Shown here one piece after another: positions 32,400 through 43,426 of a stretch of 64,000 bases of DNA. Every line of letters begins with the position of its first letter. Within the stretch, counting starts at the first letter, position 1. Origin of the DNA: Rhea pennata (taxonomy: Eukaryota > Chordata > Aves > Rheiformes > Rheidae); NCBI RefSeq assembly GCF_028389875.1, contig NC_084672.1, forward strand, positions 2,455,501 through 2,519,500. The letters are read 5' to 3'. The notes beneath the pieces were generated by a model. The model had not been told where the DNA came from. It made no database searches and saw only the letters and a list, made by a program, of their open reading frames with translations. A program made the position numbers and the translations under genes.

Positions 32400-35115
32400 T
32401 TGCACAGGCACCAGCGCAGAAGCATCACCTGCAAAGGAGCCGTAACCCCTGCGTTAGGCACTGGGCCAAATATCGGTAAGACCGAGCTTCTTCCAACAGC
32501 GCTGCAATACACAGCCCGTGCTACTACAGGCCAGAGCGCCTACTTCTCTGCCAGCCAGGTTTGCTTCTCTTTTTATTTATTTCCTTCTGGAAGAGGGACA
32601 GATGTGATGGTCCACGTTTTTCACGCGCTCTGTGGTCTGTGCTAGAGCAGGTTAAAGCAGGAGCAGCAGCCACTACGACGACAGGACCGAAAGTCGTTCT
32701 TGCACATCAGCAAGCGAAGGAGCGGGATCAGGGCGACCTCAACTCCCTTCTCCGCTGCACAACCGGAGCCCGTTTCACCCTGGGCAAGTCACTGCCTGGC
32801 TCCCCAGAGGAGCAAACCAGCAACAGAAGGGAAAAGGGAATCCTTCCCCGTTTCATCAGCTCGGATCAACAGCCCCCCCCCCCGAAAGCGGAGCTGCGAA
32901 GCCGGGGCCGGCGCGCAGCGGGGCTCCCGGCCCTCCTCCCCGCCGCGACCCGCCGCCGCGAGAGCGTCTCGCAAAGCCGCCCTATTGCTCACCAGGCGGG
33001 GACACGTCTCCGTTTCCCAGGCCAGAAGATACCTCTGTCCTTGGCGGGCAGTATTTTGGAGATGCTGGTGATGTTCCCTTGCCGCGTAGGAGATGGCAAG
33101 GCTGAGAACAAGCTTTTATTTTTGTTCCATCACGCACAAGTACCTTTTCCCATCTACAGCAAACTCCCCAGCGGTCCCTTATCCTTCCTGAAATTAATTT
33201 TGCCTCCCCAAATTACTAACCTGGCTCAACTCCGAATTAATTCCAAATCCAATGGCTTGTATTTCAGGCTCGTAACCCAGCAGGGCATTTTTATGAACAG
33301 GTGCCGCATGCCTTAAAAACCCTTCTGCAGCTGCAGACCCACTGCCGAAATCTCACCCTCGCTCCGGAGGCCCCCGCGCCGCAGGGCCTCCTGTCCTGCC
33401 TCCGCAGACGGGAGCTGGGGTGCAGCCGTCGACAGGAAAGCCTCGATCGCCGCTACGGCGCGACGCTCCGCACGCCGGGCACCGTCTGCGAGCCCTAGGT
33501 CATCCGCAAAGCCGGCAGCAGCAAACCCCTGCAGACCCCAGTCCCAAGGTTCATCTTTCGGCGGCCCGAGAGGAGCTACGTGGCAGGGTACTGAAGTGGT
33601 AACAACCACGCACAGGAAAGATCTCCCGCAGCCTTTACCTCGGGTGCTTGAATCACACCCGTGCAGGCTTGCTAAGTGCCCATGCTCCTTGCTGATGAAG
33701 CGCTGGCACGAGCAGTCTCTGAATACAGCTAGAAGCCCACCAGGCTGCCGAATCAACAGCCCTCTGCTTTCGCTCCAAAGGAAAAAAAAAACGTTTTAAC
33801 TCCAAGACTTGTTACCTGAGCTCCCCACCGGGACCAGCCCACACCTAAACCGCAGCTGCCCCCCTCCCGTAAAGCCGCAGGCACCGCTGCACTCAATGCC
33901 AACGCAGAACGACTTCAGACACCCGCTGCGGGGTGAAGCACCCGCCCGCTCCTCCCCGACAGCGGCAAGCCCGCCGGGACGGCGCACGCCTCCTCGCCGA
34001 GCTTCCCCCGCTCTCCTTCCAGGGATTAACGCCGCGATTCAGCCGGCAGTTTGCAAAGCCTTGCTGCGGCGCTTCCTCCGCTCCCTGGGAGCGACGCCGG
34101 CTCCGGGCTCCGCCGCACCAGCGCGGCCGGGGCCCGGCACGGGCCACGCGCGGAAAACTTCCCCAAGGAGCAACAAATTCCTCCCTAAAGCGAACCGGAA
34201 AATAGATGCGCTTTATTTCCCGTTGGCAAACTCAAGCTATGGAGGAAAAATGTTTAATATAAAAACATCTGACAAAGCACCTCCAGGATGTATTTTTTTG
34301 CATCAAAGCAGCTCTTGGCGACGCGCACGCTTCTCGGACATGAAAACGCTTGGGCCAAACCCGGACTGTTAGAGCCCGCGGCGAGCACGACACGCCAGCG
34401 AACTCGGCGCTACGTACGAGAGCAAAGGCAAAGCCAGAGCATCGCCGGCCCGCGTGAACAGCTGCCGGTGCCTGAACGGGATGCTCAGATACGCTCTGCT
34501 CTTTCTCTGGATCGAGGTTTGCTTTAAAAGCACAGGAGGAGGGAAGGTGCCCGGGCGGCACGCAGCTGGCAAGGCGCGGGCGCAGCCGGGGCCGGCACGC
34601 GGGGACGGCGGCACGCGGCGCCCCGAGACCTCCCGCCGCCGCGCGGCGAGCCGCTCGCGAGGAAAATAGCAGGTTTTTCTCCTAACAGGTAATTCCACAA
34701 TCTCTCCCCGAGTCTGGACCGGCGGATGTTTGCGCAGTTTCCACACATATCCGCCCTACGTATTTATAGGCTTTTTTTTTTCTCCTATTCCTAACACAGA
34801 AGATCTTCACAAATGTCCTTGTTAGCAGAAATCTTTGCAGAAATCCCTGCAGTCTGTCATTTCTTGGGGGAGGAGAGATGCTCACTCTCTCCATGCAGCG
34901 GGTTTGAAAATACGCTCGAGTTCACCCTGAACGCTGCTGGAAGCAGGAAACCAACAGCAGCAGCGACCCAGGAGGAGCCCGGCTCTCGCTGGGCCGCGCG
35001 GCACCGCCGGGGCGTCCGCTCCCCAGCGCGCGCTGCCCCGCGTGCCCCCGCCAGCATCCTCCGGCGCCCCGGGAAGAACAAATTCCCGCGGCTCCGGGCC
35101 CGTCCCGCCGCTCTG

Positions 35116-40713: not shown

Positions 40714-41461
40714 CTGGCCCACAGAGCCTGCTGAAGTGGTAGGGGTTGCAGCAGACGGTGGGGCCGTCGGCGACGCCGAAGCTCTGGCACTCGCAGAGGG
40801 GCTTGAGCTCGGCGGGGTGCTGCAGGTCGGGCCAGCGGAAGAGCTTGCCCAGGAGCAGGTGCGGCGGCGCGGCCTGGCCCCCGAGGCGCACCTCGGTGCG
40901 GGCCACCAGCACGCAGCCGCCGGGCATGCCGCCGCGGGACTCCACCGCCTCCAGCAGGCTGTCCAGCGAGCGCTCCTTGAGCCGCTTCAGCAGCGAGTAC
41001 GTGACCGCCTTGAGCTCCTGCTCCAGCAGCAGCAGCCGCGAGCGCGCCTCGCGGCCGCGCCGCTCCGGGGAGCCGCCGTCGCCGGAGCGCGGCGCCCCGA
41101 CGGCGGCCGCGGCGCCGCCCGGCTCCCGCTCCTTGAAGAGGCAGCAGGTCACCGCCCGGCAGTCGCTCTCCCGCGCCCACCGCGGGCCCGGCCCGTCGGG
41201 CGCGGCGCGCAGCCGCTCGGCCATGGGGTCGCCGCGGCGCGCCCCGCCGGCCGCCCCCGCGCACAGCTCCTCGGCCTCCCGCAGCAGGCTGCGCGTTACC
41301 GCGCGGATCTCCGCCGAGGGGTTTTTCTCCGGGGTCTTGCAGCTGCTGGCGGCTCCGCGGTCGTGGCTGCTCCTGGCGCTCCCATCTCCACCTTCCCTGT
41401 CCGGAATGACACGGCTCCTCCAAAGTCGCCGCACAAGACCTGAGCGTTTGGACCTGAACAT
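40714..41461 (-). CDS. SMAD6: SMAD6 exon 1: N-terminal region and divergent MH1 domain (residues 1-249)
   Basis: SMAD6 blocks BMP signalling. It competes with SMAD4 for SMAD1, binds type I receptors, and recruits SMURF ubiquitin ligases and nuclear co-repressors. The start is fixed by the family-typical opening [17 protein letters not shown]. The MH1-like region runs from about residue 139 to 249. It contains the helix around [20 protein letters not shown] (148-167), the AVESRGG stretch (172-178), [11 protein letters not shown] (205-215) and the end [13 protein letters not shown]. Likely zinc ligands are among C183, C223/C225, C237/C238 and H242, by analogy with other SMAD MH1 domains. Residues 20-138 are low-complexity and differ from the mammalian glycine-rich linker. 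They carry two extra copies of an AVT motif (see findings). The exon ends at the donor CAG|GTAAGG, leaving one base of codon 250. The start context is weak (C at -3, T at +4). Confidence 0.97.
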
Positions 41462-42450
41462 ACGATACGCGGGCAGCTTTGTAACGTCGGCTGGGGTCTC
41501 TTCCTTTCCCCTCCTCTCCCGCGGCCTCCTCCTGCTGCGGCCGGCTCGCCCCGTCGGCTTTTATTTCATGTCAGCGCCGTCGCCGTCGCGAGCTCCCCGG
41601 CGGCCCGAGCGCATGAAGCGGCGGCTCCCTGCAGCGCCGTGCCAAAGCCCTGCGCAGCGGCTCGCCGACGGCCCGCGGCAGCACTGCACCATGAGGGAGG
41701 CGGCGGCGGCGGCGGGGCAGCGCGCGGCCGGCATAGGCGGCGCCGCGGGGGCTGCGCCGACGGCGCGGGCCGCGGGGGCTCAGGCGCGCCGCGCCCCGGC
41801 CCTACATCCACCGCCGGCGCTCGGGGGCAGCCGCTGCCGCTTCGTCGCGCCGCAGGAAGCAGGACCCACGCGGAAAAACAGCGCAAGAGCGAGGAAAGGG
41901 GACGCGGGGACGCGGGGGGGATCCCAAGCCCGGGCCAGCCCGCGCAAAGCCCCCGACTCCTCCTCGGGGAGCGCCCCGCTCGGCCGGGCTCCCTCGCGGC
42001 TCGAACATAAAAGGCAGCTGAGCAGATCCGCCAGCGCCGCCGGTCAGTGCGCTCGCATCGGGTCTCCGGCTCGGGGTTATTTCCCTTGAGGAGGAGGGAA
42101 AAAAAAAGAAAAAAAAAAGAAAACGCAAAAAAATAAAAAAAGCAGGTTTCAGCACATGAATGGAAATTGTAAATATCCCAGGAGGAGCTGCTGGAAATCC
42201 TTCACGCGGCGGGGCGGCGAGGCGGGTCCGGGCGGCGCTGGCGCCGGGGCCGGGGGCTGCGCGGGGCTGCGCGGGGCTGCGGCGGCCGCGCGGCTCCCTC
42301 GCGGCGCCCGCGCGCCCTCGCTGCCTTTTGTGTGTGCGTGGGGCGCGCGCGCAGGGCCCCCCGGCGCGCGGCGGCGCGATTGGCTGCCGCCCATCATGTG
42401 CCAGTCTAGACACTTTGGCGGCCCCGCGCCGCGCCGATTGTTGCGCAAAC
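41462..42450 (-). other. SMAD6: SMAD6 5' UTR (start of transcript inferred)
   Basis: This is GC-rich leader sequence upstream of the ATG. It contains at least eight upstream ATGs on the minus strand, at 42157, 42058, 42008, 41807, 41734, 41692, 41614 and 41569. Two of them open minimal two-codon ORFs: ATG TGC TGA at 42157 and ATG AAA TAA at 41569. One opens a four-codon ORF (42058). The ATG at 42008 opens a frame of about 68 codons ending near 41802. A T-rich tract in gene sense lies at 42141-42099. The right-hand limit is an estimate. Confidence 0.6.
42404..42422 (-). promoter_or_regulatory. SMAD6: Smad/BMP-responsive composite site
   Basis: GTCTAGAC (42404-42411), the perfect palindromic Smad-binding element, is separated by exactly five bases from GGCGGC (42417-42422). 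Read on the minus strand this is GCCGCC-N5-GTCT. It fits the GNCGNC-N5-GTCT layout known for BMP-activated SMAD1/5-SMAD4 sites. The location at the SMAD6 start region suits the known BMP-induced negative feedback. Confidence 0.65.
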
Positions 42451-42906
42451 AAGGGCTCGAGTTTCCCAACTCTTAAAGGGGACGCGCCGCCCGCCCCGAG
42501 GGCGCGCGCCGCCCCGCCGTGGATCATCCCCCCCCCCCACCTCGGGCCCCCCAGCACACGCATATACACAAACACGCGCGTGGGGGGGGGAGGCGGAAGG
42601 AGCGCGGATGGGCACCCGCACTGCCCTCCCTCCGAGGGCGTTAAAACGGGCGTGCCCCCCCCCCACTCAGGGTACCCCCCCTCGAGCGGCGTCACTGCAC
42701 CTTTTTATTTATTTTTTTTATTTTCGGCTCGGTTCTGCTGCACCCCCCACCCCCACGCAGGACGCCTCCGCGTTTGCAGGCGCCGCCGCCTGTCCTGCCC
42801 ACCCGGGACGGCGCATCTCCCTCCCCCCCCCCCCCCCGCGCATCCCCCGCCCCCACGAGGATGCCGGCTCCGCCGAGCCCCGCGCGCGCCGGGGGAAACT
42901 AGGTCA

Positions 42907-42950
42907 GGGCGGCGCGGGCGGCGGCGCGGCGCGGCGCGGCGCGGCGCGGG
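42907..42950 (-). promoter_or_regulatory. SMAD6: GCCG/CGCC array resembling the GC-rich BMP element of Smad6
   Basis: The minus strand holds repeated overlapping GCCGCGCC units plus one GCCGCCGC that matches GCCGnCGC. A proximal BMP-responsive element made of overlapping GCCGnCGC-like motifs has been described in the mouse Smad6 promoter. The resemblance here is by motif and position only. The tract is also a simple (GCGCG)n repeat, so the match could be incidental. Confidence 0.45.
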
Positions 42951-43257
42951 TTAACGCCGCTCCCCCGCTGGAGCCGCCGCGGCGCGGACACACCCCCGCG
43001 ATGTATCAACTTGTCCCGGGTGGCAAAAGTTCAGGCCCGCCGAGCCCCGATTGGCCCGCCGCCGCGTGACGCGCGGCCCCGCCGCCGCCCATTGGCCCGC
43101 CCGGCGCCGCGGCCACGCCCCCTAGGCACGCCGGCGTGTCCGTGAATGAAAGACGCGCCGCGGGCCCCGCGCGCACCCCGACGGCGCGGCCCGGCGCGGG
43201 GCCCCGGGCGGCGGCAGGCGGCGGCCGGCCCGGGGGCGGCGGCGCCGCGGCCGCTAG

Positions 43258-43321
43258 AGGGGGACGCGGGTGGCCCCGGGGGGCGGGGGGGGGGCCCGGG
43301 GGCGGCCCCGGGGGGGCGGCT
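43258..43321 (+). other. G-quadruplex-prone G-run cluster
   Basis: At least six runs of three or more G, including a run of ten, occur within 64 bases on the + strand, at the upstream edge of the SMAD6 CpG island. A CTCF-like CCGCTAGAGGGGGA starts at 43251. Confidence 0.55.
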
Positions 43322-43426
43322 CGCCGGCGTGTTCCGCCCCGCGGCGGCGTCTGCGGCAGGGGCTGCGTGCACGAAAACTTCTCTTCCTGTATTGCAGGGC
43401 AGCCTTGCTCCCCCCACCTCCCCGCC

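What the first reader, a model, noticed from the sequence alone, without database searches (positions are those of the whole stretch)
42404..42422. BMP-responsive element with exact five-base spacing at the SMAD6 start region
The minus strand reads GCCGCC, five bases, then GTCTAGAC. The last part is the perfect Smad palindrome. The GNCGNC-N5-GTCT layout is the known binding geometry for SMAD1/5 with SMAD4, and the five-base spacer is the critical parameter. SMAD6 is a BMP-induced feedback inhibitor, so this is a strong candidate for the feedback switch. GC-rich Smad6 BMP elements are known in mammals. Whether this composite has been described at this place is not known to me.
Basis: partly seen in the sequence, partly recalled or inferred. 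Interest (0 to 1): 0.7.

Follow-up and report, generated by a model that had tools for sequence, protein, structure and literature searches.

The report
Shared SMAD6/SMAD7 promoter SMAD switch
About 940 bases before the SMAD6 coding sequence lies a perfect SMAD-binding palindrome with an E-box three bases away, the same arrangement found in front of its sister gene SMAD7 in the same genome, so it is probably a shared feedback-control site rather than a specifically BMP-type element.

Summary
The sequence is as described: minus strand 42422..42404 reads GCCGCC-AAAGT-GTCTAGAC, ending 942 bp before the SMAD6 ATG (41461, minus strand). The gene call is right (MH1 domain in exon 1). The stress on the five-base GC spacing is weak: given the palindrome, GNCGNC at N5 has a 3-6% chance in such CpG islands, N5 is not enriched beside GTCTAGAC genome-wide (8 of 79 rows over spacings 0-12), and the stricter published forms (GRCGNC-N5-GTCTG, GGCGCC-N5-GTCTG) are not met. 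A better lead lies on the other side: GTCTAGAC-N3-CACATGA. From recalled SMAD7 architecture I noted, before searching, that SMAD7 should have the same geometry. The 1.27-Gb genome gives 6 matches: one is this site, one is the SMAD7 upstream region (GTCTAGAC-GCC-CACGTGA, 1495 bp before its ATG). Of the 6, only these two lie in CpG-island-like DNA and continue as CACRTGAYGGG. A vertebrate-conserved SBE/E-box in smad7 is published. Most likely this is the SMAD6 copy of the inhibitory-SMAD SBE/E-box module, possibly with a weak GC half-site adding BMP input. Occupancy, response and conservation in other species could not be tested here.

The parts
42404..42411 (-). Perfect palindromic SMAD-binding element GTCTAGAC; only copy in the window
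42395..42400 (-). E-box CACATG (TCATGTG, M-box form, on the + strand at 42394-42400), three bases from the palindrome, toward the ATG
   Evidence: the name M-box is recalled
42390..42413 (-). Core shared with the SMAD7 upstream region, GTGTCTAGAC-N3-CACRTGAYGGG (24 positions, 19 identical, 2 CpG-type transitions, 3 spacer differences)
   Evidence: read and counted by eye from the outputs
42417..42422 (-). GCCGCC GC-rich half-site, 5 bp from the palindrome (the finding's GC part)
   Evidence: chance about 3-6% given the palindrome
42419..42423 (-). GGCCG, a 5GC SMAD MH1 motif overlapping the GC half-site, 7 bp from the palindrome
   Evidence: motif definition from PMC11907993 passage
42386..42391 (+). 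Second GCCGCC on the other side of the palindrome, at 12 bp
42379..42383 (-). CCAAT box on the gene strand
42441..42448 (.). TTGCGCAA (C/EBP-type palindrome, name recalled), only copy in the window; SMAD7 also has one upstream of its palindrome
40715..41461 (-). SMAD6 exon 1 coding part (249 codons taken), ATG at 41461, MH1 domain; exact exon end not determined

Best explanation
The site is the SMAD6 copy of a promoter module shared by the two inhibitory-SMAD genes: a palindromic SMAD-binding element (GTCTAGAC) with an E-box exactly 3 bp downstream, in CpG-island-like DNA upstream of the gene. Shown: the shared arrangement at SMAD6 and SMAD7 of this genome. Inferred: SMAD4-containing complexes bind the palindrome, a bHLH-zip factor of the TFE3/MITF or USF kind binds the E-box, and together they raise SMAD6 transcription after TGF-beta/BMP signalling, with SMAD4-Ski-type repression at rest as reported for SMAD7. 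The GCCGCC half-site at 5 bp, and the overlapping GGCCG, may add a weak SMAD1/5 input, so BMP response is possible but is not specified by this geometry.
For: The expectation for SMAD7 was written down before the search. GTCTAGAC-N3-CACRTGA: 6 matches in 1.27 Gb, one at SMAD6 and one at SMAD7. For one of the other 5 to fall within 2 kb upstream of the SMAD7 ATG by chance is about 8e-6. That locus is SMAD7 by its exon 1 (MFRTKRSALVRRLW...; Pfam MH1 2.6e-28; MH1 region 55% identical to that of SMAD6). Of the 6 loci only these two are CpG-island-like (GC 0.70 and 0.62, CpG o/e 1.02 and 1.03; the other four GC 0.35-0.47, CpG o/e 0.15-0.37). In both, the E-box starts at +11 from the palindrome start and no other CACATG/CACGTG/CATGTG lies within 250 bp; the next are at +253 and -1220 in SMAD6 and -1429 in SMAD7. 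Frequency of N3-CACRTGA on either side of other positions: 1 of 1899 around SMAD6, 0 of 2399 around SMAD7, 0.00025 of 63799 in the window. [quoted passage not shown] TFE3 with Smad3 listed for PAI-1 and SMAD7, Smad4-c-Ski repression at SMAD7, Smad4 preferring the palindrome to the CAGA motif (PMC11063908, passages).
Against: No occupancy or reporter data. As a genome-wide grammar spacing 3 is only mildly in excess (6 of 21 over spacings 0-8, Poisson P about 0.03, the two I-SMAD sites included), and the pattern read backwards gives 5 matches. Similarity outside palindrome and E-box core is slight: 16 of 30 flanking positions match, E-box included, P 0.016. The SMAD6 E-box is CACATG, not CACGTG. 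In mouse cells Ldb1 was not enriched at Smad6 pr-BS1, though it was at Smad6 BS2 (PMC4321984); whether pr-BS1 is this position is not known to me. Conservation of the SMAD6 copy in other vertebrates was not testable. The recalled 3-bp spacer requirement for TFE3-SMAD sites in PAI-1 could not be checked (paper not held).
Confidence: 0.62

Rival explanations
1. One reading: a BMP-responsive composite in which SMAD1/5 binds GCCGCC and SMAD4 binds GTCT at the required 5-bp spacing.
For: Spacing and orientation of GTCT relative to the GC half are as in the ID-type motif, and the C at +6 of the GC half, the most essential position in the tests, is kept. SMAD7 has AGCGAC at the same N5 position, one mismatch to GNCGNC (read). 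R-Smad1 ChIP-seq signal at the mouse I-Smad6 locus is reported (PMC4321984, passages), exact position not seen.
Against: The GC half differs from GGCGCC, where any substitution weakened or abolished the BMP response (PMC11907993). Strict silencer form GRCGNC-N5-GTCTG not met (PMC3738585; 0 in the window). Chance 3-6% given the palindrome. N5 not enriched: 8 of 79 rows over spacings 0-12, where spacings 7, 10 and 11 have more. A SMAD7-like near-match (up to one mismatch) has an 18-28% chance.
Confidence: 0.2
2. Chance: an isolated palindrome and E-box in a motif-rich CpG island, without regulatory role.
For: The palindrome alone is expected 0.37 times per window and 34 of 100 shuffles have one; GNCGNC motifs are abundant here (124 counts, both strands, in 41400-43400).
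Against: The same palindrome-N3-E-box at the paralogue, expected beforehand and found as one of 6 genome-wide matches.
Confidence: 0.15
3. A sub-question of the best explanation: the SMAD6 and SMAD7 modules arose independently under the same selection for feedback control, rather than from one ancestral promoter.
For: Similarity outside the core is slight; distance to the ATG differs (942 and 1495 bp).
Against: Same order, spacing and side; shared extension GTG...YGGG; the two differences inside the E-box part are CpG-type transitions.
Confidence: 0.25

Closest known systems
SMAD7 promoter SBE/E-box (palindromic SBE with TFE3-type E-box)
   Same: GTCTAGAC, 3-bp spacer, CACRTGA E-box toward the gene, CpG-island-like DNA upstream of an inhibitory SMAD; both read from the same genome
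   Different: E-box is CACATG here and CACGTG in SMAD7; spacer letters differ (TGG against GCC); distance to ATG 942 against 1495 bp; SMAD6 has a CCAAT box, SMAD7 none within 250 bp. That the SMAD7 site of this genome is the published one is inferred; the published letters were recalled, not seen
ID-type BMP response element GGCGCC-N5-GTCTG
   Same: GC-rich half, 5-bp spacer, GTCT in the same orientation
   Different: GCCGCC instead of GGCGCC; GTCTA instead of GTCTG; linker AAAGT lacks the G at +2/+3 enriched in SMAD1-bound composites (PMC11907993 section 8)
Drosophila silencer element GRCGNC-N5-GTCTG (loose form GNCGNC-N5-GTCT)
   Different: Misses R at position 2 and the final G of the strict form; in flies it is a repressive, Schnurri-recruiting element
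Mouse Smad6 BMP-responsive element (Ishida 2000)
   Same: GC-rich SMAD1/5 motif upstream of Smad6 (recalled; paper not held)
   Different: Recalled as a more distal run of GCCGnCGC-like motifs without a GTCTAGAC palindrome; not compared here

Membership tests
I-SMAD promoter SBE/E-box module (SMAD7 type) | Perfect palindrome GTCTAGAC upstream of an inhibitory SMAD gene | tested here: met
   SMAD7 counterpart
I-SMAD promoter SBE/E-box module (SMAD7 type) | E-box at the same spacing and side as in SMAD7 | tested here: met
   +11 in both; 6 genome-wide matches
I-SMAD promoter SBE/E-box module (SMAD7 type) | Conserved across vertebrates | not testable with these tools
   No relative of this genome is held; conservation is published for smad7 (PMC4321984, legend). 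A 22-mer scan of prokaryote genome contigs gave 0 and says nothing on this
I-SMAD promoter SBE/E-box module (SMAD7 type) | Bound by SMAD3/4 and TFE3, TGF-beta responsive | not testable with these tools
   needs ChIP and reporter
ID-type BMP response element | GGCGCC half-site | tested here: not met
   GCCGCC, one mismatch
ID-type BMP response element | 5-bp spacer and GTCT orientation | tested here: met
ID-type BMP response element | GTCTG | tested here: not met
   GTCTA
Silencer element, strict GRCGNC-N5-GTCTG | full consensus | tested here: not met
   0 in the window
Silencer element, loose GNCGNC-N5-GTCT | full consensus | tested here: met
   2 in the window, 1.42 expected

The most novel reading that the evidence does not exclude
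A palindromic SBE with an E-box at 3 bp is an ancestral promoter module of the inhibitory SMADs, kept in both SMAD6 and SMAD7 since their duplication, so that both feedback inhibitors carry the same SMAD4/TFE3-type input, and SMAD6 is wired to TGF-beta and MiT/TFE (nutrient or lysosome) signals as well as BMP. In the SMAD6 copy the E-box has the M-box form, which could tune it to MITF/TFE rather than MYC/USF factors.
Probability: 0.45. Interest if true: 0.55.

Novelty: new member of a known kind. Interest (0 to 1): 0.4.

Why it matters
SMAD6 is commonly regarded as the BMP-induced inhibitor and SMAD7 as the TGF-beta-induced one (recalled view). A common promoter module would give both genes the same basic feedback switch and make their differences a matter of added sites. 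It gives a precise, short target for mutation in both genes and a clear comparative test across vertebrates.

Tried and rejected
GNCGNC-N5 as the defining feature: rejected as the main reading because of its chance rate, absence of N5 enrichment and failure of strict forms. The backward control that the tool prints for GNCGNC patterns (190 forward and 190 reverse; 2108 and 1941) is not a fair control, because reading CpG backwards gives the commoner GpC; I did not use it. For the E-box patterns the backward control was 5 against 6 and 67 against 21: the arrangement is not enriched genome-wide by that measure; the case rests on where two of the six lie.

Search for the promoter in other species: the tool says no relatives of this genome are held; a 22-mer scan of genome contigs gave 0; I did not scan viral contigs. 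A literature search for flanking letters of SMAD6 and SMAD7 (14 papers, 13 listed) gave titles on unrelated subjects; I opened none. Morikawa 2011, Hill 2016, Hua 2000, Ishida 2000 and Hua 1999 are not held, so what I say of Ishida and Hua beyond titles and the review's table is recalled.

TTGCGCAA shared upstream (SMAD6 -37, SMAD7 -90): noted, not used as proof. By a hand estimate (no call) some shared 8-mer in two 100-bp flanks has a chance of roughly one in eight, and this one was picked after the fact.

Whether the module is described for SMAD6: in searches of the open-access library I saw no paper that by title, start of abstract, or passages read reports it; I opened only a few of those listed. 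Only PMC4321984 held both 'Smad6 promoter' and 'E-box'; its SBE/E-box passages that I saw (12 of 26 places shown) concern SMAD7. This is not proof that it is unpublished. Searches (SMAD7/TFE3; silencer consensus) served background.

Full report
Observation. The minus strand at 42422..42404 reads GCCGCC-AAAGT-GTCTAGAC. The gene is SMAD6: an ORF on the minus strand begins [17 protein letters not shown] at 41461, carries a Pfam MH1 domain (E 2.4e-30) and matches MH1 domains of solved SMADs (14 distinct sequences). The name SMAD6 rather than SMAD7 rests on the N-terminus, recalled, and on the other I-SMAD gene of this genome being distinct. The palindrome ends 942 bp before the ATG, in CpG-island-like DNA (GC 0.70, CpG o/e 1.02 over about 1 kb).

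Chance. The palindrome occurs once in the window (0.37 expected; 34 of 100 shuffles have one). The loose composite GNCGNC-N5-GTCT occurs twice (1.42 expected). GNCGNC is its own reverse complement, so either side of the palindrome counts; given the palindrome, the chance of a match at exactly N5 is 4.5-6.1%, or 6.2% and 2.8% by sliding over the SMAD6 and SMAD7 regions. In the whole genome GNCGNC-N5-GTCTAGAC has 8 places; over spacings 0 to 12 the rows are 2,2,4,7,6,8,2,11,7,4,12,9,5 (79 in all), so five is not special. These 79 rows count three palindromes twice (this one among them, once for each side) and hold four copies of one repeat; I removed none. Of the 8 N5 places, 2 are CpG-island-like by my measure (this one and L012); L012's gene was not identified. 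The tool says its genome counts can be lower bounds for repeats.

What else is there. On the gene strand the palindrome is followed by TGG and CACATGA, an E-box that reads TCATGTG on the other strand. From memory, the SMAD7 promoter has GTCTAGAC followed by three bases and CACGTGA. I wrote this in the notebook and then searched the genome for GTCTAGAC-N3-CACRTGA: 6 places in 1.27 Gb (pattern read backwards, 5). One is this site. Another, C61:78904577-78904594 on the minus strand, has its palindrome 1495 bp before an ATG that opens [17 protein letters not shown], with an MH1 domain: SMAD7. The other four lie in AT-richer DNA without CpG-island character. From the flanks printed, only the two I-SMAD sites continue as CACRTGAYGGG; both also have GT before the palindrome, which one other site (L006) shares. 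The two differences in that part, CACGTGACG against CACATGATG, are both CpG-type transitions.

Strength. The E-box starts at +11 in both genes and is the only CACATG/CACGTG/CATGTG within 250 bp; further out SMAD6 has others at -1220 and +253 and SMAD7 at -1429. N3-CACRTGA beside other positions: 1 of 1899, 0 of 2399, and 0.00025 of 63799 in the three backgrounds. One of the five other hits landing within 2 kb upstream of SMAD7 by chance: 8e-6. Against this, spacing three is only mildly in excess genome-wide (1,1,3,6,4,1,1,1,3 over spacings 0-8, 21 in all, P 0.03), so this is not a common genomic grammar; and outside palindrome and E-box core the two flanks are hardly alike (16 of 30 positions with the E-box included, P 0.016).

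Literature, all seen as abstract, sections or passages, not whole texts. [quoted passage not shown] R-Smad1 and Ldb1 co-localise at the mouse Smad6 locus; Ldb1 enriched at Smad6 BS2 and not at Smad6 pr-BS1. PMC11063908 (passages): TFE3 with Smad3 at PAI-1 and SMAD7; Smad4-c-Ski repression at SMAD7; Smad4 prefers GTCTAGAC to the CAGA motif; both SMAD6 and SMAD7 are TGF-beta-induced. PMC12259022 (passages): GTCTAGAC is the most enriched SMAD motif in SMAD4 peaks after BMP4, chiefly at PRDM16 co-bound sites linked to repression, and may be bound by SMAD4 with pSMAD1/5/8 or pSMAD3. PMC11907993 (abstract, sections 7 and 8, passages): BMP-active composites follow GGCGCC-N5-GTCTG-like syntax; changes in the GC half weaken or abolish the response; 5-bp spaced pairs of GTCTAGAC responded to TGF-beta1 and not to BMP6; such composites explain under 1% of SMAD1 binding. 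I saw no test there of a GC half paired with GTCTAGAC.

Mechanism. Most likely the palindrome loads SMAD4-containing complexes at the SMAD6 promoter with help from a bHLH-zip factor at the E-box, as proposed for SMAD7: repression by SMAD4-Ski at rest, activation by R-SMAD/SMAD4 on signal. The arrangement is shown; binding, factor identity, the start site and the response are inferred.

Verdict. Observation confirmed; interpretation partly supported; the site is best filed as a new (SMAD6) member of the known SMAD7-type SBE/E-box promoter module, with the vertebrate-wide conservation test still to be done.

Noticed in passing
window 34626-34640, minus strand: GGCGGC-GGGAG-GTCT in a GC-rich patch downstream of SMAD6 exon 1 (presumably intron 1): meets GRCGNC-N5-GTCT (followed by C, not G), with G at linker +2/+3. 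Two such loose matches in the window are about what chance gives.
   Followed up: partly
window 42441-42448 and G000:C61:78904684 (L008/L009): TTGCGCAA, a C/EBP-type palindrome, is present once upstream of the SMAD palindrome in both SMAD6 (-37) and SMAD7 (-90).
   Followed up: partly
L008, 5794 bp downstream of the SMAD7 promoter palindrome: A second GTCTAGAC in the SMAD7 locus, beyond exon 1.
   Followed up: no
G000:C41:301584-301604: GTCTAGACACGTGCCGGCGCC: SMAD palindrome overlapping a CACGTG E-box, next to GGCGCC; gene not identified.
   Followed up: no
G000:C10:21555674-21555692 (L012): GCCGAC-N5-GTCTAGAC in a CpG-island-like stretch (GC 0.64, CpG o/e 1.12); gene not identified.
   Followed up: no
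G000:C8, 36281876 to 36548455: Four copies of GTCTAGACAGTCTTTTCCGTCGGC, probably a local repeat.
   Followed up: no
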